Below the pieces are notes generated by a model that ran no database searches, was not told the DNA's origin, and saw only the letters and a program-made list of their open reading frames with translations. From Acidimicrobiia bacterium (GTDB taxonomy: Bacteria > Actinomycetota > Acidimicrobiia > Acidimicrobiales > Acidimicrobilacustridaceae), in NCBI GenBank assembly GCA_020832495.1, contig JAFIEP010000026.1, positions 1 to 63,009 on the forward strand: a stretch of 63,009 bases of DNA, read 5' to 3'. Position numbers and translations under genes: made by a program. Below, in pieces: positions 166-46,922 of the stretch. Position 1 is the first letter of the stretch; every line of letters starts with the position of its first letter.

Positions 166-1260
166 TTAGCATCGTGCCGAGTTCCGGAGAATGGAGCGCA
201 GCCGCCGCGCTGCGTGGTTGTTCGAGAAGGTTTCGGCGCGCGCTTTAGCATCGTCCTGATCCCACACCATTGACCTCACTGTGGAAACGGCGTCGACTAA
301 CGCGTCGACGTCGTCGCTCGGTACCAGTAGTCCGTCAATGCCGGGTCGTACGATCTCCTCGGCACCACCGCCATAGGTGCCGATCACGGGCACGCCGGCG
401 GCGAGTGCCTCCACCATCGATATTCCGAATGGCTCGCCTGCTGAGGCGGAGACAAGCACGTCGGACGCTGCTATCCAGGTTGGGATGTCATCTCGCCAGC
501 CAGGTAGGCGAACTCGGTCGGCAATCCCCAGATCCACCGGTAGCTGCACGACCTCATCGGCGAATTCTGGGTCCCGCGGGTGGGCACTGCCAAGGAGACA
601 GGCGTGGACGTCGTCGGGTAGCTCCGCAACGCTGCGGATAAGGATGTCAGGGCGCTTCCAACGCTCAAATCGAGACAGCATGAGGAGTACGAATGCATCA
701 TCGGGCAGGTCCAGGGCCCGCCGAGCTTCGGCTCGGCTTGGGGGCATCTGCTCACGGATGCGGCGGAGGTCCACAGGCGGGTGCATAACCTCCACCCGAC
801 GGTGCGGCCAGATCGCCCGTTGATGTCGCGCAGCCAGCCCGGAGCAGGCGAGGGTGGTGGTCTGTGGCACGAGCGTAGCCAGTCGGTCGATGGCGGTCGG
901 TGTCGCCGGAATCCCGTGTTGGTACCACGACAACGGCGCACGCGCGGTGCGAGCCGCTATGGCGCCGGGAACGATGCCAGAGGCCATCCAGACGAGGACG
1001 GCCGAGACCCGTTCGCTGTGGAACCACTTTCCGATTTCTCGTCCTCCCTGCCAGGCTCGATGGACCGACCGGATTCGTCCTGCGGGCTTCACCAGAACAC
1101 GCCGGTCGGCTCGAGCGATGGCGTCGACAAGGTCGCCCGGTTCGAAGAAGGCGAAGCGGAACTGGTCGCCGACCTCGGCCGTCGCCAGATCGAGGAGTGC
1201 GCGCTCGGCCCCGCCGCCCATGTGCCCGAGGGGCATGACAATGCCGACTGGGCCGGTCAC
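166..1260 (-). CDS. Glycosyltransferase family 4 (GT-B)
   Basis: 364-residue retaining-type GT-B glycosyltransferase, expected to add one sugar from a nucleotide donor to the lipid-linked repeat unit on the cytoplasmic side of the membrane. The N-terminal domain has the glycine-rich GHMGGGAER (residues 12-20). The donor domain has the EX7E motif as EPFGISMVE (276-284), followed by GVPVIGTYGGGAEEI. It is the last gene of the left-reading polysaccharide operon. Its GTG start overlaps the TGA of the ligase-like gene (GTGA), so translation is probably coupled. Donor and acceptor sugars cannot be read from sequence. Confidence 0.85.
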   Translation of the reverse strand: MTGPVGIVMPLGHMGGGAERALLDLATAEVGDQFRFAFFEPGDLVDAIARADRRVLVKPAGRIRSVHRAWQGGREIGKWFHSERVSAVLVWMASGIVPGAIAARTARAPLSWYQHGIPATPTAIDRLATLVPQTTTLACSGLAARHQRAIWPHRRVEVMHPPVDLRRIREQMPPSRAEARRALDLPDDAFVLLMLSRFERWKRPDILIRSVAELPDDVHACLLGSAHPRDPEFADEVVQLPVDLGIADRVRLPGWRDDIPTWIAASDVLVSASAGEPFGISMVEALAAGVPVIGTYGGGAEEIVRPGIDGLLVPSDDVDALVDAVSTVRSMVWDQDDAKARAETFSNNHAARRLRSILRNSARC

Positions 1261-2819
1261 GGCTGCTCTGCCGGAGTTGGCTGTAGGGGACTCCTAGAGG
1301 GTGAAGCGGTCTCAGTATCGGGGGTTGCCGCCACCGGCCGCTTGCCGTGCGACGACGTCGGTGTGGTTGCATCGGGAGAAGCGCGCTGGCGGTCGAGCCA
1401 ACCCAGAGCGAGCCATGCCAGCGTGGACACGCCGTACTCCCCGCCGTTGAGCCAGTTGCCAAACGTGGCGAGCAGGATGATGAGAGCGACGAGCGACAGG
1501 GTGTCCCGGCGGAGTCGCACCAGCCGGAATGCCGTGCGAAAACCATTGAATGCCAAGGCGACGAACAACACGAGTCCCGGGAGGCCCCAGGCGAGCGCCA
1601 CGTTGCCGAGGTCGTGCTCGGCGCTGCCGAGGGCCGTCTCGCCGAAGCGCGAGCCAGCAAGGGTGAAGGACTGCTGCCCTCTGCCGATGGGGTGCTCCAT
1701 CGGTGCCTGGACGGCGTTGACGACCATCTCGATGTGAATGTTGGCCGTGGACACGTCGTCGTTCATCGGGTCCTCGAGGCCTTGGACCACATGGTTCACG
1801 AACGGTGCGACACGCTCGTCGAGGGCCTCGACGTCGACTTGCTGTAGTGACCAGTTGAGCGTCACCAGCGCGAGCACGACCAGAAGCGGCACCAGGACGA
1901 TGCGTTGCGCGCCGCGGGAGCGGATGGCAGGAATCAGCGCGAGGAGCACAACGACGATGACCACCGGGGTGCGTGACCCCCCGAGGACGAGCGCATAGAG
2001 AAGAAATGCCACGCCTGCGACGCGCACCGGCGTGGGCAACTTGGGCAGGGCGAATGCCACCAAGAGCACACCGATCATGATGATGCTCACCATCTCGGCC
2101 GCGCTCACCGAGGCACCGAAGGGCCGAATGCTCCCTCCAACGTTCAGCGCGGCGTACCCTCCCTGCTCCACCCATGCAGCATCCCAGGCCGGGAATCCGT
2201 TGAGGACTTGGTGCTGGGCGTACAGCGCGCTCGCAGCGGCGGCCCCGACGAGAAGGTAGACGACCGAGCGGAAGAGTCTGTCGTCGAGGTAGGCCTTGCC
2301 CACCCAGAACCACAGGGTGGGAACGAAGAAGAACAGCAGCGAGGACAGCCCCGACAGCACCGATCCTGCGAAGGGGTTGAGGGCCCACACCACCGCCAAG
2401 GCCCCGAGGGCCAGTACGAGGCCGCTGAGGGTGGAGTCGATGTGCAACCGGCCCCGCTGGGCAGCGAGGACGATGAGCAGCAAGGCAACAGCGGGTCCGA
2501 CGAGCAGCAGAGGATCGTTGGTGAGTTCGCCACCGAGACCCCAGGCGAGCAGTCGTCGCAGCACGCCGAGGCCCAACAGGTAGCCGAGGGTCACCAGGAC
2601 GGCCGCACGCGGGTTGGCGGTGATCGCCACGACCGCCACCAGCGACGCACACCCGGCCACAACGGCAGCGACGAACAGGGTGCCGCCGATCCCGCCGGCC
2701 ACCACCATGGCTGCGGGAGTGGCCACCACGATGCCGGCGCAGGCAAGGGCGACCCAGGCCGAAGGGAGCAAGGCGCGGCTTTCCGAAAGACGGTGCCGCT
2801 GGAGGCTGAGGGCAGTCAT
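1257..2819 (-). CDS. O-antigen ligase/polymerase-like membrane protein (Wzy/WaaL type)
   Basis: 520-residue polytopic membrane protein with about eleven hydrophobic segments between residues 20 and 480 and a low-complexity Thr/Ser/Pro-rich cytoplasmic tail. Near residues 375-420 it has a large non-membrane loop with PIGRGQQSF and then SAEHDLGNVALAWGLPG, the layout of the Wzy_C/O-antigen ligase family (GxGxxxF, then H..G...WGxxG). Family members polymerise lipid-linked repeats or transfer the glycan to an acceptor; sequence alone does not separate the two. ATGA overlap with the upstream double glycosyltransferase. Confidence 0.75.
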   Translation of the reverse strand: MTALSLQRHRLSESRALLPSAWVALACAGIVVATPAAMVVAGGIGGTLFVAAVVAGCASLVAVVAITANPRAAVLVTLGYLLGLGVLRRLLAWGLGGELTNDPLLLVGPAVALLLIVLAAQRGRLHIDSTLSGLVLALGALAVVWALNPFAGSVLSGLSSLLFFFVPTLWFWVGKAYLDDRLFRSVVYLLVGAAAASALYAQHQVLNGFPAWDAAWVEQGGYAALNVGGSIRPFGASVSAAEMVSIIMIGVLLVAFALPKLPTPVRVAGVAFLLYALVLGGSRTPVVIVVVLLALIPAIRSRGAQRIVLVPLLVVLALVTLNWSLQQVDVEALDERVAPFVNHVVQGLEDPMNDDVSTANIHIEMVVNAVQAPMEHPIGRGQQSFTLAGSRFGETALGSAEHDLGNVALAWGLPGLVLFVALAFNGFRTAFRLVRLRRDTLSLVALIILLATFGNWLNGGEYGVSTLAWLALGWLDRQRASPDATTPTSSHGKRPVAATPDTETASPSRSPLQPTPAEQP

Positions 2820-5047
2820 GGGGCCGTGGCCTCGGAGCGGGATACTGCCACGGACTCATAGACCTTGCGATAGTCGTCGGCGACGTCGTCCCAGGTCCGC
2901 GCCGAGGCCCGCCGTCGTGCTTCGGCACCGAGGTGTTGACGCAGTGTGGGATCTCGCGCCAGACGTTCCACTGCCGAACTCACGGACGCGAGGGTCGGCT
3001 CGACGAGAATGCCGGCCTCATCGTCGCCGATCAACTCCGTGATCCCGTGCACACGGGTGCCCACCACGGGCAGCCCCACTGCGGCCGCTTCCCATGATGC
3101 GAGCGAGAACGTCTCGTAGGCTGAAGGAAGGCAGAACACATCGCACCCAGCGAGCACACGCTCAGGATCGGAACGCCGCCCGAGGAAGTGCGTCTGATCG
3201 AGAATACATCCGCGGAGACGCGCTCTGTTCCCCTCCCCGGCGACGACGGCAACGACTCGCTGCGACAGGTGGCGGTCGGCGGCTGCAGCACCTGCGAGCA
3301 CGAGACGGAGGTTCTTGTGCTCCCAGTTTCCTCCCATGAATGCGACGGCGACGTCGTCGTGGCCGAGGCCGAGGTCGGAGCGGATCGCTGCGCGCGCTTC
3401 TTCATTAGGTGCGAACCTCTGCGCGTCGACGGCGTTCTGGATCTTGTCGACTCGCACGGTGGGATGCACGCTTCGCACTTCGTCAGCAAGACCGCCCGAC
3501 ACGGCAACGATCGTGCTCACTCGTCCCGGACGAAAACACCAGCGTTCCGCTGCGAGCGCCAGAGCGTGCACGATGCCGGTGTTGAGTTTCGCGACTCCTG
3601 TGGCACCTGGGGCAAGCGAATGGTGGCGACGCCACGCTCCATGGTGTGAGTAGTGCACCGAGATCACGTCTGCCCTCGTGCCGACAATGGCTCCCTCGGT
3701 GTGCACCACCCCGCGTGCGTGTCGAGCGTTGATGCTTCCGACAATCCAGAACAGCGGGAACAGGACGCTGACGGGGCGACCCGGCAGCGGTAGCCGAACC
3801 ACTCGGTCGGCGGCGGCGGCGACCGACGGAGCGACGCGACGGCTGATCACGGTGAGGCGGTAGTGCTTCGCCAAGCGGGGGAGCACCTCCATCGACACTG
3901 TTTCCATGCCGCCAGCCGGCCATACCTGATGGGCCACATAAGTGAGTTCCGGGCGGTGGTCGATTCCGCCAGCGCCGTGGAGCGCGTGGCGGACAGCGGA
4001 CACAGTGTGGTGGACGGCGAAGTGCTCTTCGTAGGTGGCTCGAGCGTTGTCGGCCAGTTCTCTGCGGGCTGCTGGATCGGAGAGCAGGTGCTCAACCGTC
4101 GATGCCAGCGTGTCGGGCGGAGCCACTGCCAACGCACCACGCTCGACCAGCGCAGTCCACGTCGCAGGACCGTCAATGGCGACGACGGCGGCACCTTGTG
4201 CGAGTGCGGCGGCGAGAGTGCCCTTTCGGCCGCTGGGCCCATCGGCGTTGATCAGCAGCACGAGGGTCGAGTCACGCAGTGAGCGCCCGTAGTCCTGCGG
4301 ATCGCACACGCCGGTGAACTCGATGAAGTGCCGGTCCTCAAGCCTGCGCCACATGGCGGTCGCTGGCTGGCCCGCCGGGTCGGGAGCGCCGACCAGCAGT
4401 ATCCGCAGCCGCGTTCGGACCTTCGAGAGCGCATCCACCGCGTTGGCCGCACCCGGATCGGTCCACGACGGCACCGCAAGCGTGGGCACGGCTGAATCGT
4501 TGCTGTTGTGCTGCCCCCCTTCATCCCCCGAGGCGTCGACCGCCGTCGGCACGTTGGAGAACGCAGGGGCAACGCACACCGGACGAGGCCGGCGGGCGAG
4601 ACCACGTACTTCGGCAGCACGCTGTGGGCTGGTCACGACGATGCCGTGTGCTCCGTCGAGCACACAGCGGAATGCGAGTCGCTGGCACACCGACCATACC
4701 CAGGTGCGTGGGTCACGCGAGGCATCAATGAATGCTTCGTGCACGAACAAGCAGGTGCGGACGTTGCGTGCACGAAGCACAAGCACCAGCAGTACGGCGG
4801 GAGTGGGGATACCCTTCCAGGCCCAGGCGAACACGCTGTAGTGGACGACGACAGCGTCACCGGAACGGGGCCGTCGGAGACTCCACCACAAGGCCCGCAA
4901 CCCCCGCCGGACGATGGACGAATCGTCGAGGATGGCTAGCTCACCGGGGTCCTCGTTTGCGAGTTCCTCGGCGAGAAGCCGTGCGTGGTCGCGGACGCCA
5001 CCCGGCCCTGGCGGAACCAGGGCGAGGGTGTGGATGGCCTGGCTCAT
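2816..5047 (-). CDS. Double GT-B glycosyltransferase (two fused GT4 modules)
   Basis: 743 residues, twice the usual GT4 length. Residues 1-360 form a first GT-B unit starting LALVPPGPGGVRDHARLLAEEL. Residues 365-743 form a second, starting THVAHQVWPAGGMETVSMEVL in pattern. The C-terminal unit carries a normal EX7E (ETFSLASWE, around residues 655-663) followed by GLPVVGTRVHGITELI. At the equivalent place the N-terminal unit reads SGRKGTLAAALAQG, with no glutamate pair, so it may be inactive, act as an acceptor or partner domain, or use another donor geometry. ATGA overlaps on both sides tie it into the operon. Confidence 0.8.
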   Translation of the reverse strand: MSQAIHTLALVPPGPGGVRDHARLLAEELANEDPGELAILDDSSIVRRGLRALWWSLRRPRSGDAVVVHYSVFAWAWKGIPTPAVLLVLVLRARNVRTCLFVHEAFIDASRDPRTWVWSVCQRLAFRCVLDGAHGIVVTSPQRAAEVRGLARRPRPVCVAPAFSNVPTAVDASGDEGGQHNSNDSAVPTLAVPSWTDPGAANAVDALSKVRTRLRILLVGAPDPAGQPATAMWRRLEDRHFIEFTGVCDPQDYGRSLRDSTLVLLINADGPSGRKGTLAAALAQGAAVVAIDGPATWTALVERGALAVAPPDTLASTVEHLLSDPAARRELADNARATYEEHFAVHHTVSAVRHALHGAGGIDHRPELTYVAHQVWPAGGMETVSMEVLPRLAKHYRLTVISRRVAPSVAAAADRVVRLPLPGRPVSVLFPLFWIVGSINARHARGVVHTEGAIVGTRADVISVHYSHHGAWRRHHSLAPGATGVAKLNTGIVHALALAAERWCFRPGRVSTIVAVSGGLADEVRSVHPTVRVDKIQNAVDAQRFAPNEEARAAIRSDLGLGHDDVAVAFMGGNWEHKNLRLVLAGAAAADRHLSQRVVAVVAGEGNRARLRGCILDQTHFLGRRSDPERVLAGCDVFCLPSAYETFSLASWEAAAVGLPVVGTRVHGITELIGDDEAGILVEPTLASVSSAVERLARDPTLRQHLGAEARRRASARTWDDVADDYRKVYESVAVSRSEATAP

Positions 5048-6876
5048 CCAACCCCGCCAGCTTGTGCTGGGGCGATGCCGGCAAGGTCCGCCAGGCGATC
5101 GAACGTCGGGTTCACCCTTCGCAGTTCCTCGAACCCTCCGAGGCCAGTCACCCGACCGGCCTCGAGAAGACAGATCGTGTCGCAGCGGCGCACGGTGGAC
5201 AGGCGGTGAGCAACGATGATGGTGGTGAGATCGCCTCGCAGTTTCTCCACGGTGGCCGTTATGCGCGCCTCGGTATCCACATCGAGCGAAGCGGTGGCTT
5301 CGTCGAGGATGAGCACGCTCGGGCGCCGGTAGAGGGCTCGGGCCAGACCGATCCTCTGTCGCTGCCCACCAGAGATCCGCACCCCGCGTTCGCCCACCTC
5401 CGTGTGAAAGCCAGCAGGAAGGCTGTTGATCCAGTCGGTGAGCTCCGCCTGCTCGGCGGCCGCGGAAAGAGCCGCATCGTCGATCTCACTCGGTTCAGAC
5501 CCGAACGCCAGGTTCTCGCGCAGAGTCGCGTCCACCAAGAACACGTCCTGCGGTACATACCCGACTGCTTCCCGCCAGGCGTCAGCGACATCATGCACCG
5601 GCCGTCCGCCGACGAGCACCTCACCGCCCGTGGGCTGGTGCAGCCCGAGGATCAGGTCGAGCAGCGTCGTCTTGCCGGCACCGGAGGAGCCCACGATGCC
5701 GAAAGCGCTGCCGCGCTCGATGCGGAAGGCAACTCCGTCGAGGACCGGGGCATCGGAGGAGTAGCCGAAACGCAGGTCGGTCACGGAGACGGCAGGGCCG
5801 GTCGCTGGGAGTTCCAGTCGTGTGGCAGAAGGTCCGCTCGGCTGGAACCGGTCAAGATCGGCCACCACGGTTTCGATGCCGGGAAGCTGGGATCGCACCT
5901 GGTTCGAGACCTGCAGCATGCGGCCGAACGAGGGCATGGCGCGGAAGCCAGCGCCGAGGAACAAGGCCAGGGAGCCCATGGCGGCTTCCGCCCCGAGGGT
6001 CCCCACAAGGACGGCGGCGGCGGCGGCCAGCCCGATGATGAGCACCACCTCGAGGTAGTAGCGGGGCAGGTTTCCGTAGACAGCGATCTTGCGGTTCTCG
6101 CCAGCCATTCGCGTTCTGATCCGCTGCAGGTCCTGAGCGAAGTATGGGGTGCTGTTGGAGACATAGATCTCCTTCACCCCGCCAAAGGCGTGCAGCAGTG
6201 ACCGGTACTGCTGCCTGATGAGCTGGTGCTGGCGCTCAGCGACTCTCCGCACTCGCTTGCGTACGAAACGCTCGTAGCTCCACACGGCAAGCCCGAGGTA
6301 GAGGGCGAGAGCGAGCGTGACCCACGGTGAGGTGACGGTGAGGAGGGCAAGCACTGCGAGGAGGACAAACACCTCGGCAGCGAGGTTCAACAGGCCGAAG
6401 AGCCCGAAGCCGATCGCGTGCGTGACGTTGTCCTTGACGTTGCGCACCAGTTCGGCGGAAGGGTGTTCGAGGTGGAAGCGGTAGGGCGCTGCTAGGTAGG
6501 AGCGGATGAGGCGTCCGGCGGTGTCGGCGTCGACCCCGAACACGAATCCAGCGTTCCACCACTGGTAGAGCACCGTACCGATGGAGCGAACAATGAACAA
6601 GCTTACGACTGCTCCGCCGAGTAGCGCAGCAAGATGTGTGGGTTCGGTGATGCCAGTGACCGACACCAGTCGTTCGGTCATCCCAGTGGGCCGCTCGGGA
6701 TTCATCAACAGGTCGGTGAGGGGGACCAGCAGCCCCAGTGCCACGAGGTCGAGCATGGCCAAGCAGGCACCAACGACCACGGCGAGGAGGAGGCGACGGC
6801 GTTGTGCACCGCTGAGCACAGCAACGATCGATCGCAGTGCCTGTGCAACATCTGCTGAGCCCGCAGCGGCCATCAC
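5044..6876 (-). CDS. ABC exporter, fused permease and ATPase (MsbA/PglK type)
   Basis: 610 residues. The N-terminal ABC transmembrane domain (about 25-340, six helices) is followed by a nucleotide-binding domain with Walker A GSSGAGKTT, signature ISGGQRQRIGLARALY, Walker B VLILDEATASLD and the H-loop AHRLSTV. Homodimers of this type flip lipid-linked oligosaccharides (PglK) or export lipids. No Wzx flippase was found in the locus, so this is the likely repeat-unit exporter (inference). Start: GTG at 6876 overlapping the kinase stop, or the ATG directly after it. Confidence 0.85.
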   Translation of the reverse strand: MMAAAGSADVAQALRSIVAVLSGAQRRRLLLAVVVGACLAMLDLVALGLLVPLTDLLMNPERPTGMTERLVSVTGITEPTHLAALLGGAVVSLFIVRSIGTVLYQWWNAGFVFGVDADTAGRLIRSYLAAPYRFHLEHPSAELVRNVKDNVTHAIGFGLFGLLNLAAEVFVLLAVLALLTVTSPWVTLALALYLGLAVWSYERFVRKRVRRVAERQHQLIRQQYRSLLHAFGGVKEIYVSNSTPYFAQDLQRIRTRMAGENRKIAVYGNLPRYYLEVVLIIGLAAAAAVLVGTLGAEAAMGSLALFLGAGFRAMPSFGRMLQVSNQVRSQLPGIETVVADLDRFQPSGPSATRLELPATGPAVSVTDLRFGYSSDAPVLDGVAFRIERGSAFGIVGSSGAGKTTLLDLILGLHQPTGGEVLVGGRPVHDVADAWREAVGYVPQDVFLVDATLRENLAFGSEPSEIDDAALSAAAEQAELTDWINSLPAGFHTEVGERGVRISGGQRQRIGLARALYRRPSVLILDEATASLDVDTEARITATVEKLRGDLTTIIVAHRLSTVRRCDTICLLEAGRVTGLGGFEELRRVNPTFDRLADLAGIAPAQAGGVG

Positions 6877-42519: not shown

Positions 42520-43317
42520 GTGGAGCACCTCTTCCATTCCGGGCGCGACGCCATTGCCGGCCACCTGGCCCGCCCGAAAGTGGCGCGCGGGACGTGGACC
42601 CCGGCGGTGGTGCTGGCCCACGGGTTCCCCACCGGGCGCGACGGGGGTCGCACGGTGAGCCAGACCTTCCCCGAACTGGCCGACCGTATCGCCACCGAGA
42701 TGGGCTGGTATGCGCTGGCCTTCACCTACCGGGGCTGCGGCGACTCCGAGGGCGACTTCTCCCTCAGCGGCTGGCTCGAGGACCTGCGCAGCGCGGCGGC
42801 GTGGGTGCGTCGCCTGCCCGACGTGGGCGGCGTGTGGACCGTGGGCTACGGCACCGGCGGGGCCATGGCCATCTGCGCCGCCGCCGACGACCCGACCATC
42901 CGCGGTGTGGCGGCGTTGGGGGCGCCGGCGGACTTCGACGACTGGGCCCGCCACCCTCGCCGACTCCTGCAGCACGCCCGCGAACAGGGCATCGTGCGCT
43001 CCAGTCGCTATCCGCCGTCGTTCGACACCTGGACGAAGGATCTGCGTTCGCATCGGGCGGTGGCGGCGGTGGCCGCCCTGCCGCCGCGGGCCCTCTTGGT
43101 GGTGCACGGCGACGACGACAACGTCGTGCCGGTGTTCGACGCCCGGGTCCTCGCCGATGCCCACGGCAGCGCCGATCTGCGCATCATCGACGCCGGTGGC
43201 CACGAGTTGCGCCACGACCCGCGGGCGGTGGCCGTCCTCCTCGGCTGGCTCGACCGCCAACGCAACGACGCGCAAGCGGCGCGGGACCGTCACCCGTCGA
43301 TGGATCTGCTGCGCTGA
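42520..43317 (+). CDS. Alpha/beta hydrolase lacking the usual nucleophile serine
   Basis: 265 residues from GTG 42520. The fold is clear: oxyanion-hole strand VVLAHGFPTG, then YRGCGDSEGDFS, LLVVHGDDDNVVP and the terminal His in DAGGHELRHD. At the nucleophile elbow the sequence is GYGTGG, so the GxSxG serine is glycine. Either the neighbouring Thr acts or the protein is not a classical hydrolase. The same GxGTGG elbow, to my knowledge, occurs in other actinobacterial members, so it is probably a family trait and not a mutation. Confidence 0.75.
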   Translation: MEHLFHSGRDAIAGHLARPKVARGTWTPAVVLAHGFPTGRDGGRTVSQTFPELADRIATEMGWYALAFTYRGCGDSEGDFSLSGWLEDLRSAAAWVRRLPDVGGVWTVGYGTGGAMAICAAADDPTIRGVAALGAPADFDDWARHPRRLLQHAREQGIVRSSRYPPSFDTWTKDLRSHRAVAAVAALPPRALLVVHGDDDNVVPVFDARVLADAHGSADLRIIDAGGHELRHDPRAVAVLLGWLDRQRNDAQAARDRHPSMDLLR

Positions 43318-43372: not shown

Positions 43373-43588
43373 TCAACGAGGGCGGTAGTCGGTGGCCTCC
43401 ACCTCCACGGCGAGCACGCCGGGCAGGCGGCGGAGGTGCTCGACGAGGGCTCGGTCGCAGGTGGCGCTCACCACCCCGATGGTGTCGAGCACCGCAGTGA
43501 CCTCGGCCCCGGCGGCTCCCACGGCCCGGGCCACCTCGGCCACGGCGTTGGCGTGGTCGTCGTCCACGGTGATGGTCACCGCCGTCAC
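43373..43588 (-). CDS. Standalone inhibitor I9-like (subtilase propeptide) protein
   Basis: 71 residues, GTG 43588 with GAGGTGAT upstream. Predicted beta-alpha-beta-beta-alpha-beta order: VTITVDD, HANAVAEVARAVGAAG, AEVTAVLDTIGVVSATCD, RALVEHLRRLPG, VLAVEVEATDYRP. This is the ferredoxin-like shape and LPGV..VE ending of peptidase inhibitor I9 domains. It lies 71 bp downstream of a subtilase gene on the same strand, so it may inhibit or help fold that protease in trans. The family call is by pattern only. Confidence 0.55.
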   Translation of the reverse strand: MTAVTITVDDDHANAVAEVARAVGAAGAEVTAVLDTIGVVSATCDRALVEHLRRLPGVLAVEVEATDYRPR

Positions 43589-43659
43589 GAGATCACCTCG
43601 TGCTCGACGAGGGTGGGCTGCCGGCGGCCGATGGGTCGTCCGGTCCCCTCGGTCACCGG

Positions 43660-45033
43660 TCAGCCCGCCTGCGGTGCGACGGCCAGCCCGGCGCCGACGT
43701 CGGCGGCCGACACGTCGAGCGGCGACGCCGTGCAGGTGAGCCGGCGCCACAGTTCGCTGCCGTGGTGTCCACCGTGCTGTGCCCAACAGGCGGCCAGGCC
43801 CGCCACATGCGGAGTGGCCATGGACGTCCCGTTGGTCGCCAGGTAGCCGGGTGGGTGCGGCCAGGCGGAGCGGACGGCGACGCCGGGAGCGGCCACGTCG
43901 ACACGGGCGCCGCAGGCGTGGCCGCTGCGGGCCGAGAAGTCGGCCACGGCCAGGCGGGGGTCGACGGCGGCCACGGCCAACACGGTGGAGGCGTTGGCCG
44001 GCGTTCCCACGAACCCGGGACGGCCGTGGCTGCGGCGGGCGTTGTTCCCGGCGGCAGCCACCAGCAGTGAGCCGCGCTCGAGCGCTCGTTGGCCGACGAC
44101 CTCGTAGGTCACCCGCGGGGTGGCGACGTCGGCGCCGAGCGACAACGACACCACGTGCGCCCCGTTGCGCAGGGCCCAGTCGATGCCGGCCAGGATCCAA
44201 CCCTCGTTGCCGCTGCCGCCGTCGGAGAGGACCTTGCCCACCAACAACTCCACCTCCGGCGCCACGCCGTAGCGTGGTCCGGAGGTGGGGCTGGCGGGTC
44301 CGGCGACGGTGCCCACACAGTGGGTGCCGTGGCCGTTGGCGTCCTCCACGGACTCGCCGGGCACGAACGAGGCAGTGGCCCGGGCCCGACCGCAGAGATC
44401 GGGGTGCGCGGTGGCCACCCCGGTGTCGAGTACCGCCACGGTCACCCCGGCACCGGCCGCCGGGTCGTGGGCACCGACCGCCCGCAGCCCCCAGGTCAGC
44501 TCGTCGTCGTCGACCTCGCCGCTGGCCTGGTCAGCGCCGTCGAGAGCCCCCGTCGGTGCGGCCACCGCCGCCACGAGCGCGCTGACCCCGTCGTGAAACC
44601 CACGCAGGTAGGCGTCGAGCGGTGGGGAGGTCGGCAACGTCGTGGCACCGAGGGCGTGGAGCACCAGCTCGGGTTCGGCGGCCATCACCCCGAGCTCTCC
44701 GGTGCGGGCAGCGACCGACAGCGAGCCGAGCTGGTCGGGGTCGCCGTGGATAACCGCCACGCCGAGCGCCTCGAGCACCATCACCTCGGGCTCGGCGTGA
44801 CCGCGGGGCCCGCCGCCGAGATCCGCGCTCGAGGCGACCTCGCTCAGGCCCACCCGGTCGGCCAGCGTCCTGGTCAGCGCAGCGGCCTCGCCAGGACCGG
44901 ACAGGGTGAGCACCACCCCTGGCGGCGGAGGGGCGGGTGAGCGGGCCGGCGGCGAGCCGTTGCCGTCGCCATCGGTGGTGCCGCCACCGGCGGTGGGATC
45001 GGGGAAGGAGGGGCGTGCGGAATCGGTGGTCAT
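43660..45033 (-). CDS. Subtilisin-like serine protease (S8), apparently without signal peptide
   Basis: 457 residues from ATG 45033 with AAGGAG upstream. Pro/Gly-rich N-terminus (about 1-38), a small pre-domain (VMVLEALGVAVIHGDPDQLG to EPELVLHALG), then the S8 domain with Asp in VAVLDTGVA, His in NGHGTHCVGTVAG, oxyanion Asn in AAAGNN and Ser in TNGTSMATPHVAGLAA. No Sec signal or anchor is visible, so it is either cytosolic or exported by another route. It forms a unit with the I9-like gene downstream. Confidence 0.85.
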   Translation of the reverse strand: MTTDSARPSFPDPTAGGGTTDGDGNGSPPARSPAPPPPGVVLTLSGPGEAAALTRTLADRVGLSEVASSADLGGGPRGHAEPEVMVLEALGVAVIHGDPDQLGSLSVAARTGELGVMAAEPELVLHALGATTLPTSPPLDAYLRGFHDGVSALVAAVAAPTGALDGADQASGEVDDDELTWGLRAVGAHDPAAGAGVTVAVLDTGVATAHPDLCGRARATASFVPGESVEDANGHGTHCVGTVAGPASPTSGPRYGVAPEVELLVGKVLSDGGSGNEGWILAGIDWALRNGAHVVSLSLGADVATPRVTYEVVGQRALERGSLLVAAAGNNARRSHGRPGFVGTPANASTVLAVAAVDPRLAVADFSARSGHACGARVDVAAPGVAVRSAWPHPPGYLATNGTSMATPHVAGLAACWAQHGGHHGSELWRRLTCTASPLDVSAADVGAGLAVAPQAG

Positions 45034-45148
45034 GGTCGCTCCTTGGCAGGGGCCTCGGCCGGGCGGGCCGACGGAGCGCCCACGGGTATCACCGCCACCA
45101 GTGACCGCCATGATGTGGCCACGGTGGGTGAGGAACGACCGGGTCGGG

Positions 45149-46693
45149 TCAGACGGAGCGGATCTCGATGCGGTAGTCGCCGCTCTCGGAGAAGGACCAC
45201 GACTCCACCTCGAGGAAGTAGGTGCCGGGCTCGAGTTCGGCGGAAACCTCGGGATCGAACCCGTGGGTGTCGTCGTTGAAGCGCAGCTCCTCGCCGAAGG
45301 CATCGACGAGGCGCAGCGTGGTGTCCACGAAGTCGGGATCGATGCCGGCAAAGCCGTCGTCGTCGGTGTCGATGCTGCCGTACACCCGCACGACCACCCG
45401 CTGCGATCCGCCCTCCACCTGCAGGCACCATCGGTCGACGCCCTCCTCGGGCACGAAGCCGACGGCGTCCTCGCCGATGCCCAACTCCGGCACGCCGTCG
45501 CAGCCTACGGCTGCGGTGGGTGGTGTCGTCGTGGGTGTCGGCAGGGTGGTGGTCGGCCGCTGCATGGTCGTCGTCGGGCCGGTCGGCACGGTGGTGGTGG
45601 CCGAGCCGTCGGAGAACAGATCGGCGTCGAGGGCGTCGTCGCCGAGTGCCACCGCCATGGAGTAGAAGCCAGAAGCCGTGGCCGACCACGCCGCCACCTC
45701 GAGGGTGTACTCGCCGGCGTCGAGGGTGGCGAAGACCTCCGGATCCAGACCGTGGGTGTCGTCGTTGAACACCACTTCGGCATCGGTGTCGTCGAGCAGT
45801 GCCAAGGTGGTGTCGAGGTTGCCGCCGTAGACGCGGACGCGCAGCGGCGTGTCGTCGGCTCGGACGTCGAGGCACCAGCGTTCCACGGCGCCCTCGGCGA
45901 TCATCCCGTCGACGTCGTCGCCGTCGAACACCTGCATGTCGGCCCGGTCGCTGCAGGCGCCGCTGCCGCTGTCACGTAGGGCCACGAAGGCGGCGGCGCC
46001 GCCGAGGATGGCGACGACCACCACCACGAGTACGGCGACGAGGATGCCCTTGGAACCACCCGAGGACGGGGGGACGCCGCCCGGCGGGGGTGACCACGCC
46101 GGAGGTGGGCCGCCGGCACCGGGAGGTTGACCACCGGGAGGTTGGCCGGCGGGAGGCTGGCCGGCGGGAGGCTGGCCAGCGGGAGGCTGGCCGGGTGTCG
46201 GGGGGCCGCCCGTCGGTGGTGACCACGGCGGTGGTGCTCCGCCTGGAGGTGGGGCCGACCACGGCGGTGGTTGGTCCCCGGGCGGGGTGGGCGCCGGCGG
46301 GGGATAGCCGGGTGGCTGGTCGGCCGCGGGCGGGGTGGGCGCCGGCGGGGGATAGCCGGGTGGCTGGTCGGCCGCGGGCGGGGTGGGCGCCGGCGGGCCG
46401 CCGGCTGGTTGTCCGCCTGGAGGTGGGGTCGACCACGGTGGTGTGCCGCTGGTGTCAGGTGGAGTGGGCGCCTGCCGACCCACGCTCGACCAGGTGCTCG
46501 GCGGCGGGATCGGCGCCGTGGGCGGCACCGGGCTGACCGGCGGGGGTGGCGCCGTGGGGGGCGTCGGCTCCGTCGGTGGGCCAGCGGCCGCATCGTCGGT
46601 TGCGGGGGGCAACGGTCCGCTGGAGGGTGGTGCGCCGCAGATCGGGCACGACTGGTCGTGCTCGCTGATCTGGTGGCCACTGAGACACTGCAT
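45149..46693 (-). CDS. Zinc-ribbon, Pro-rich, membrane protein with two PPC-like domains
   Basis: 514 residues from ATG 46693 (AGGAGG upstream). An N-terminal ribbon (C3, then CPICG) is followed by ~200 residues of Pro/Gly repeats, one membrane helix (ILVAVLVVVVVAILGGAAAF) and two similar extracytoplasmic beta domains. Each domain has a pattern of RWCLDVR or RWCLQVEGG, RVYG, D.TL.L.D and FNDDTHGLDPEV or FNDDTHGFDPEV. These resemble bacterial pre-peptidase C-terminal domains. It lies next to the subtilase. The ribbon would be inside the cell and the PPC pair outside, suggesting a scaffold or sensor. Confidence 0.65.
   Translation of the reverse strand: MQCLSGHQISEHDQSCPICGAPPSSGPLPPATDDAAAGPPTEPTPPTAPPPPVSPVPPTAPIPPPSTWSSVGRQAPTPPDTSGTPPWSTPPPGGQPAGGPPAPTPPAADQPPGYPPPAPTPPAADQPPGYPPPAPTPPGDQPPPWSAPPPGGAPPPWSPPTGGPPTPGQPPAGQPPAGQPPAGQPPGGQPPGAGGPPPAWSPPPGGVPPSSGGSKGILVAVLVVVVVAILGGAAAFVALRDSGSGACSDRADMQVFDGDDVDGMIAEGAVERWCLDVRADDTPLRVRVYGGNLDTTLALLDDTDAEVVFNDDTHGLDPEVFATLDAGEYTLEVAAWSATASGFYSMAVALGDDALDADLFSDGSATTTVPTGPTTTMQRPTTTLPTPTTTPPTAAVGCDGVPELGIGEDAVGFVPEEGVDRWCLQVEGGSQRVVVRVYGSIDTDDDGFAGIDPDFVDTTLRLVDAFGEELRFNDDTHGFDPEVSAELEPGTYFLEVESWSFSESGDYRIEIRSV
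46280..46397. repeat. 48-bp tandem repeat in the Pro-rich region
   Basis: Two identical 48-bp units (46280-46327 and 46328-46375) and a 22-bp partial third. On the minus strand each codes for PPAPTPPAADQPPGYP. Just left (about 46128-46192) are shorter 15-bp repeats coding for AGQPP. Copy number is likely to vary between strains. Confidence 0.9.
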
Positions 46694-46922
46694 CACGTCG
46701 GTCCTCCTGAGCGCCTCGGGCGCCGACCCGCCAGGCGAGGACGCTACACCCTGCGTCACCGGCCTCGATAGGGGCGTTGGGCCTCATCTCGGCGCGGCAT
46801 CGGCCGGCGCGATATCCTGGCGGATCCACAGGGTTCGGTGCGGCGTAGTGCGTGCCGGTTCGGTGGGGGTGAGGCGGGGGGACGACACGCCGAGATTCGG
46901 TGTACGACGACGGACGTGGCAC

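What the first reader, a model, noticed from the sequence alone, without database searches (positions are those of the whole stretch)
43373..45033. Subtilase paired with a separate I9-like gene
The S8 protease has a full catalytic set but no visible signal peptide. A 71-residue protein with the I9 propeptide shape is encoded just downstream. Propeptides are normally fused; a trans-acting inhibitor/chaperone with a possibly cytosolic subtilase would be an unusual toxin-antidote-like or regulated-proteolysis arrangement.
Basis: inference. Interest (0 to 1): 0.55.

Follow-up and report, generated by a model that had tools for sequence, protein, structure and literature searches.

The report
Protease with a separate propeptide-like partner
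A bacterial subtilisin-type protease with no export signal is paired with a second gene for a small protein shaped like the built-in 'safety cap' of such enzymes, and the pairing recurs in distant bacteria, so the small protein probably keeps the protease in check.

Summary
Window 43660-45033 (-) encodes a 457-residue S8 protease with the full catalytic set and no visible signal peptide; 71 nt downstream, 43373-43588 (-) encodes a 71-residue protein. [quoted passage not shown] It stays below Pfam's I9 cut-off. The pair is a conserved unit: all 20 family members found, in at least five phyla, carry the small unit (18 downstream on the same strand, 1 divergent, 1 fused in frame to a protease lacking its catalytic serine). 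Within the window's class only the window's genome has it (247 searched). Most likely the small protein is a dedicated trans inhibitor, perhaps also chaperone, of its protease. Inhibition, cellular location and any toxin-antidote role are not shown. Stand-alone I9 inhibitors are known in eukaryotes; my literature searches found no bacterial cis-plus-trans pair.

The parts
43660..45033 (-). S8 (subtilisin-like) serine protease, 457 aa, no visible signal peptide
45039..45044 (-). AAGGAG ribosome-binding site of the protease ATG
   Evidence: sequence
44641..44925 (-). fused (cis) I9-like N-terminal domain, residues 37-131, with E120-P121-E122 motif
43777..44454 (-). catalytic S8 domain (Pfam match residues 194-419; D203, H235, N330, S404)
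43373..43588 (-). separate (trans) I9-like protein, 71 aa, GTG start
43594..43599 (-). GAGGTG ribosome-binding site of the small gene
   Evidence: sequence
43376..43405 (-). small protein residues 62-71: putative helix-capping E62-x-E64 and C-terminal tail ATDYRPR, expected to enter the protease active site
   Evidence: inference from propeptide anatomy

Best explanation
A two-gene unit: a subtilase without export signal, made with its own fused I9-like domain, plus a dedicated stand-alone I9-like protein that acts in trans on the same protease. The small protein docks with its beta-sheet on the two surface helices of the catalytic domain, caps them with its E-x-[D/E] motif, and lays its C-terminal tail in the substrate groove, so that the protease is held inactive until the small protein is removed or outcompeted; it may also help the protease fold. 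Shown: both genes, the I9-like fold of the small protein (model), the fused I9-like domain (profile comparison), the constant linkage, and correlated divergence. Inferred: binding, inhibition, the tail in the active site, competition between cis and trans units, and cytosolic location.
For: [quoted passage not shown] The five best Foldseek hits are subtilase propeptides, led by the BPN' prosegment 1spb_P (E 8.5e-3, TM 0.75); VIA Z 9.2-9.8 to the isolated propeptides. Profile of nine small proteins over 396 genomes: 30 loci examined, 3 stand-alone and all next to a family protease; of the other 27, 24 lie in frame N-terminal to an S8 domain. Leave-one-out recovery 17 of 18. Co-occurrence 20 of 20 family members, against 0 of 27 non-family S8 loci. 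Four of the 18 same-strand pairs overlap by 4 nt. Divergence of protease and partner correlates, r 0.55, 0 of 10000 permutations as high. Cap motif: acidic at the E62 position in 13 of 18 and at the E64 position in 13 of 18 (read). Five of 18 small proteins end exactly six residues after the second cap position with Ala-[Ile/Met], the length of a cleaved propeptide tail; seven of 18, the window's among them, have Pro at that position (read).
Against: No binding or inhibition data exist. The small proteins do not reach Pfam's I9 cut-off (best E 0.2, in one of 9). Foldseek gives no hit at E <= 0.001, and another ferredoxin-like fold scores as well (NapD Z 10.0). Pro at the P1-equivalent position may weaken binding: 3vv2_B, a mutant Tk propeptide, ends in Pro and I recall that this mutation reduced binding. 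Six of 18 tails fit neither tail type. The protease's own fused I9-like domain could already do the job. L050's partner is not recovered by the profile. The protease model failed (pLDDT 32), so no complex could be examined.
Confidence: 0.62

Rival explanations
1. The small protein is mainly a folding chaperone in trans (foldase) that the fused domain can no longer supply; inhibition is incidental.
For: Propeptides of subtilases act as folding chaperones (PMC6993865 abstract; established knowledge). Overlapping genes in several pairs would deliver both proteins together.
Against: The fused domain is retained in the aligned family members, so a second foldase is not obviously needed; many tails run past the P1-equivalent position, as an inhibitor's might.
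Confidence: 0.15
2. Addiction or defence module: the protease is toxic to its own cell and the small protein is an unstable antidote; loss of the antidote, or a trigger such as phage, frees the protease. (A special case of the best explanation with a definite role.)
For: Scattered presence (3 of 396 genomes of the window's phylum; 5 of 392 genomes of the phylum of L009), frequent on plasmids (11 members), partner always retained. Two of 20 members have a broken protease and an intact small unit (L016, annotated as two overlapping CDS; G913); the reverse was not seen. One pair lies between a DndB-annotated gene and a DNA methyltransferase gene.
Against: No recurrent defence neighbours by eye; PADLOC matches cover only the S8 part, and nothing matches the small protein. 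Two broken proteases are anecdotal, and L016 or G913 could be sequencing or assembly errors.
Confidence: 0.15
3. The small protein is a ferredoxin-like export or targeting chaperone (NapD-like) for the protease, or an unrelated ligand-sensing domain.
For: NapD, a Tat proofreading chaperone, is the top VIA match (Z 10.0, rmsd 4.6); ACT-type domains also appear.
Against: NapD aligns with larger rmsd than the isolated propeptides (4.6 against 1.7-3.1); the sequence profile picks subtilase propeptides; no signal peptide is visible in 17 aligned proteases.
Confidence: 0.05

Closest known systems
SUB1-ProM of Plasmodium and TgMIC5 of Toxoplasma (stand-alone subtilisin-propeptide mimics; PMC6993865, abstract and passages read)
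   Same: Small separate gene with propeptide fold; SUB1-ProM lies next to subtilase genes and inhibits SUB1, a protease that has its own propeptide too
   Different: Eukaryotic; the paper calls such mimics possibly convergent; here bacterial, no signal peptide, constant two-gene linkage across phyla
Pleurotus POIA1, yeast proteinase B inhibitor, Arabidopsis SPI-1 (MEROPS I9 stand-alone inhibitors; named in PMC6993865, short names partly recalled)
   Same: I9-type fold used as inhibitor in trans
   Different: Eukaryotic; whether they lie beside their target genes was not examined here
I9 propeptides of bacterial and archaeal subtilisins (BPN', subtilisin E, Tk-subtilisin)
   Same: Fold, E-x-[D/E] cap region, tail length in 5 of 18
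   Different: Those are fused and removed on maturation; here the unit is a gene of its own, beside a protease that also has a fused one
IPI (BsuPI), inhibitor of Bacillus intracellular subtilisin Isp1 (PMC3901451, passages read)
   Same: Separate inhibitor of an intracellular subtilase
   Different: Ig-like fold; the paper states that in no completely sequenced genome is its gene close to a subtilisin homologue gene
Type VII secretion mycosin (TIGR03921)
   Same: Best named NCBIfam model for the catalytic region (130 bits)
   Different: Far below its cut-off of 278.75; no export signal here

Membership tests
Peptidase family S8 (subtilases) | Pfam PF00082 above the curated cut-off | tested here: met
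   152.1 bits against 21.8
Peptidase family S8 (subtilases) | Asp-His-Ser triad and oxyanion Asn | tested here: met
   D203, H235, N330, S404; identical in all 17 aligned family members
Inhibitor_I9 (Pfam PF05922 / MEROPS I9) | Pfam gathering score | tested here: not met
   No match for P0002; best E 0.2, one of 9 small proteins; 0 in the own genome
[quoted passage not shown]
   AlphaFold pLDDT 88.2; Foldseek top five are subtilase propeptides
Inhibitor_I9 (Pfam PF05922 / MEROPS I9) | Sequence relationship to subtilase propeptides | tested here: met
   24 of 27 non-standalone loci hit by the profile are in-frame propeptides; profile-profile P 3.5e-13 (partly circular); PDB propeptides only at E 0.004-0.13
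Inhibitor_I9 (Pfam PF05922 / MEROPS I9) | Inhibits a subtilase | not testable with these tools
   needs an assay
[quoted passage not shown]
   About 190 residues precede the S8 domain, including an I9-like domain; definition from PMC3901451 passages
IPI (BsuPI) | Ig-like all-beta fold | tested here: not met
T7SS mycosin | TIGR03921 curated cut-off | tested here: not met
   130.2 against 278.75 bits
IetS / PADLOC subtilase (anti-phage) | Full-length match of the protease | tested here: not met
   Partial S8-region matches only: subtilase 88 bits, 169-353 of 391; IetS 25.5 bits, 248-363 of 795
Toxin-antitoxin module | Toxicity of one partner, neutralised by the other | not testable with these tools
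   needs expression experiments

The most novel reading that the evidence does not exclude
A mobile bacterial cassette in which a cytosolic subtilase is kept latent by two propeptide-like units, one fused and one encoded separately, the separate one serving as antidote or release switch: its loss or degradation frees an intracellular protease for programmed proteolysis such as plasmid addiction or anti-phage defence.
Probability: 0.25. Interest if true: 0.75.

Novelty: new variant of a known kind. Interest (0 to 1): 0.55.

Why it matters
Propeptides are textbook fused, single-use inhibitors and chaperones. A bacterial subtilase family without export signal that carries one fused and one separately encoded propeptide-like unit, linked in every one of 20 members found from at least five phyla, would be a simple genetic system for studying how an intracellular protease is kept silent and released. 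In the ten annotated plasmid members the small gene is called only 'hypothetical protein', so the pair has a testable function not yet assigned to it.

Tried and rejected
Rejected: that the small ORF is a chance frame. That the pair is an Acidimicrobiia feature (the small protein matches in 6 of 247 genomes of the class at E <= 0.001, the five besides the window weakly; the protease in 2 of 247). Pattern scans added none: L168 and L170-L185; a scan with the L088 protease found only L088's own contig again (L169).

Led nowhere: AlphaFold of the protease with three rows gave pLDDT 32 and pTM 0.32 and was not used. The N-terminal domain profile against PDB sequences found no clear relative (1scj_B at E 0.55). 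Single-sequence searches of P0002 in plasmids and PDB found nothing. Promoter and terminator scan: none found. A structure of the two proteins together could not be run. No search found a paper on such a bacterial pair (open-licence PMC only, most subscription papers missing).

Dropped before counts: H23/L051 (Rhizobium phaseoli) was fetched and is not a family member. Of 285 plasmid records matched (60 listed), 12 were fetched; H13 and H14 look like H12 and were not. L011 was left out of A5 because its annotated start cuts the domain. Six of 36 places have no locus and were not classified. L016 was left out of the protease alignments because its protease reads as two overlapping CDS; L088 and L189 are in no profile used for their own detection.

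Full report
What is there. On the minus strand of the window, 45033..43660 encodes a 457-residue subtilase (Pfam S8 152 bits) and 43588..43373 a 71-residue protein, 71 nt apart, each with a good ribosome-binding site. The triad Asp203-His235-Ser404 and Asn330 are intact and identical in all 17 aligned family members. Neither protein has a hydrophobic leader by a simple Kyte-Doolittle scan; by eye the same holds for the 17 aligned proteases and 18 aligned small proteins, whose most hydrophobic stretches lie in strands and helices of the I9-like domain. This is not a trained signal-peptide predictor, so cytosolic location is an inference and non-classical export is open.

Is the small gene real? 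Relatives were found through the protease. A profile of the 17 other small proteins, scanned over the whole window in six frames, returns this ORF as its only hit at E 5.5e-14; leave-one-out recovers 17 of 18 small proteins in their own loci at E 5.2e-4 or better, the miss being L050.

Is it I9-like? By curated library, no: Pfam and NCBIfam give nothing above cut-off for any of nine small proteins. By fold and profile, yes. [quoted passage not shown] Foldseek's five best PDB matches are propeptides of BPN', subtilisin E and Tk-subtilisin, E 8.5e-3 to 1.7e-2, TM 0.70-0.75; no match reaches 0.001, and the common ferredoxin-like fold also brings NapD and ACT domains. VIA Z is 9.2-9.8 for the isolated propeptides with rmsd 1.7-3.1, and 10.0 for NapD with rmsd 4.6. 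The stronger evidence is sequence: a profile of nine small proteins, built without any subtilase, was run over 396 whole genomes of the window's phylum. Of 30 loci returned, three are stand-alone genes, all beside a family protease; of the other 27, 24 lie in one open frame with, and N-terminal to, an S8 domain, which is the place of ordinary propeptides; L038, L044 and L045 do not show this in the fetched stretch.

The protease has its own I9-like domain. Residues 37-131, aligned for 16 members, match the small-protein profile over 66 columns (probability 92%, P 5.3e-7) and the propeptides of the 24 loci over 48 columns (P 6.7e-7); ten column-shuffled versions gave P 0.29-0.86 against the same propeptides. 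Against PDB sequences the same domain profile found no clear relative. The E-P-E motif near its end (E120, P121, E122 identical in window, L009 and L088) matches the small protein's E62-x-E64 position. In subtilisin-propeptide complexes such a pair caps the two surface helices (BPN' Glu69 and Asp71; passage of PMC6993865). So both units probably aim at the same site and would compete; this is inference.

Is the pair conserved? Twenty family proteases were identified: the window; ten annotated plasmid loci L010-L014, L016, L017, L048-L050 and the unannotated plasmid locus L015; G375 and G592 of the window's phylum; G605, G674, G730, G657 and G913 of the phylum of L009, whose record is titled Planctomycetota; and L088 from IMG/VR. 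Named hosts are Streptomyces, Methylobacterium, Rhizobium, Palleronia, Vibrio, Hymenobacter, Deinococcus and a planctomycete. All 20 carry the small unit: 18 downstream on the same strand, one upstream and divergent (G605), one fused in frame to a protease that stops before the catalytic serine (G913). The early small-protein profile was trained on nine of these loci, so for those nine the match is circular; the later members and the leave-one-out test are not. Control: 0 of 27 S8 loci from the same 396 genomes that scored about 209-258 bits, below the 528-555 of family members, had such a neighbour within the fetched stretch. Gaps between the genes run from a 4-nt overlap (four pairs) to 151 nt. 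Catalytic-domain and partner distances correlate over 17 pairs, r 0.55, 0 of 10000 permutations as high. Shared ancestry alone would also produce such a correlation, so it shows joint inheritance rather than contact.

Against a wider reading: the unit is rare and scattered (3 of 396 genomes; 5 of 392), and in the window's class only the window's genome has it among 247 (with L008 an ordinary subtilase). Neighbouring genes of the annotated plasmid members show no recurring partner by eye.

How it most likely works. The protease is made with a fused I9-like domain; the separate protein, usually made from the same transcript by its position, binds the same face of the catalytic domain and keeps it inactive. 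Tail anatomy supports an inhibitor. Five of 18 small proteins end exactly six residues after the second cap position with Ala-Ile or Ala-Met, as a cleaved propeptide would (BPN' ends His-Ala-Tyr, recalled). Seven of 18, including the window's, carry Pro at that position, which should resist cleavage; six fit neither. These tail counts are my reading, not a statistical test. A caution: a Tk-propeptide mutant with Pro at its end is in PDB (3vv2_B), and I recall that the change weakened binding.

Comparison. Stand-alone I9 inhibitors are known in fungi, plants and apicomplexans, and SUB1-ProM even lies beside subtilase genes (PMC6993865, abstract and passages). The known bacterial inhibitor of an intracellular subtilisin, IPI, has an Ig-like fold and is never next to a subtilisin gene in completed genomes (PMC3901451, passages). 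The present pair works like the former and, by the tests run, is not the latter. PMC3482391 was read in passages only; they do not describe it. From memory, small genes of this kind beside S8 peptidases are sometimes labelled 'ketohydroxyglutarate aldolase' in public annotation; no call confirmed this (one search found no paper).

Verdict. Real, conserved and under-described; the biochemical idea is familiar, the cis-plus-trans arrangement in bacteria is the new element. Toxin-antidote is possible but rests on weak, indirect evidence.

Noticed in passing
window 45149-46759 (-): 536-aa proline-rich protein with one transmembrane stretch and two PPC-type domains, 115 nt upstream of the protease on the same strand; not among the annotated neighbours of the plasmid members.
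   Followed up: partly
L189 / L190 (G913), 568-1899 (-): Protease lacking its last part with the catalytic Ser is fused in frame to an intact small protein: natural deletion or assembly error.
   Followed up: partly
L016 3544-4855: Streptomyces avidinii protease is annotated as two overlapping CDS (probable frameshift) while the small gene at 4900-5163 is intact.
   Followed up: no
L050 666-6273: Vibrio plasmid pair lies between a DndB-annotated gene and a DNA cytosine methyltransferase gene.
   Followed up: no
L011 1-473: A TIR-domain protein lies about 3.5 kb upstream of the Methylobacterium nodulans pair.
   Followed up: no
L089-L097: IMG/VR contigs of 93-216 kb carry S8 proteases (202-234 bits with the family S8 profile) with neither the I9-like domain nor the partner gene.
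   Followed up: partly
L192, L193: The window's genome has two other S8 domains, in open frames of 1535 and 1030 residues.
   Followed up: no
window 42520-43317 (+): Alpha/beta hydrolase gene, convergent with the small gene, 55 nt between the two ends.
   Followed up: no
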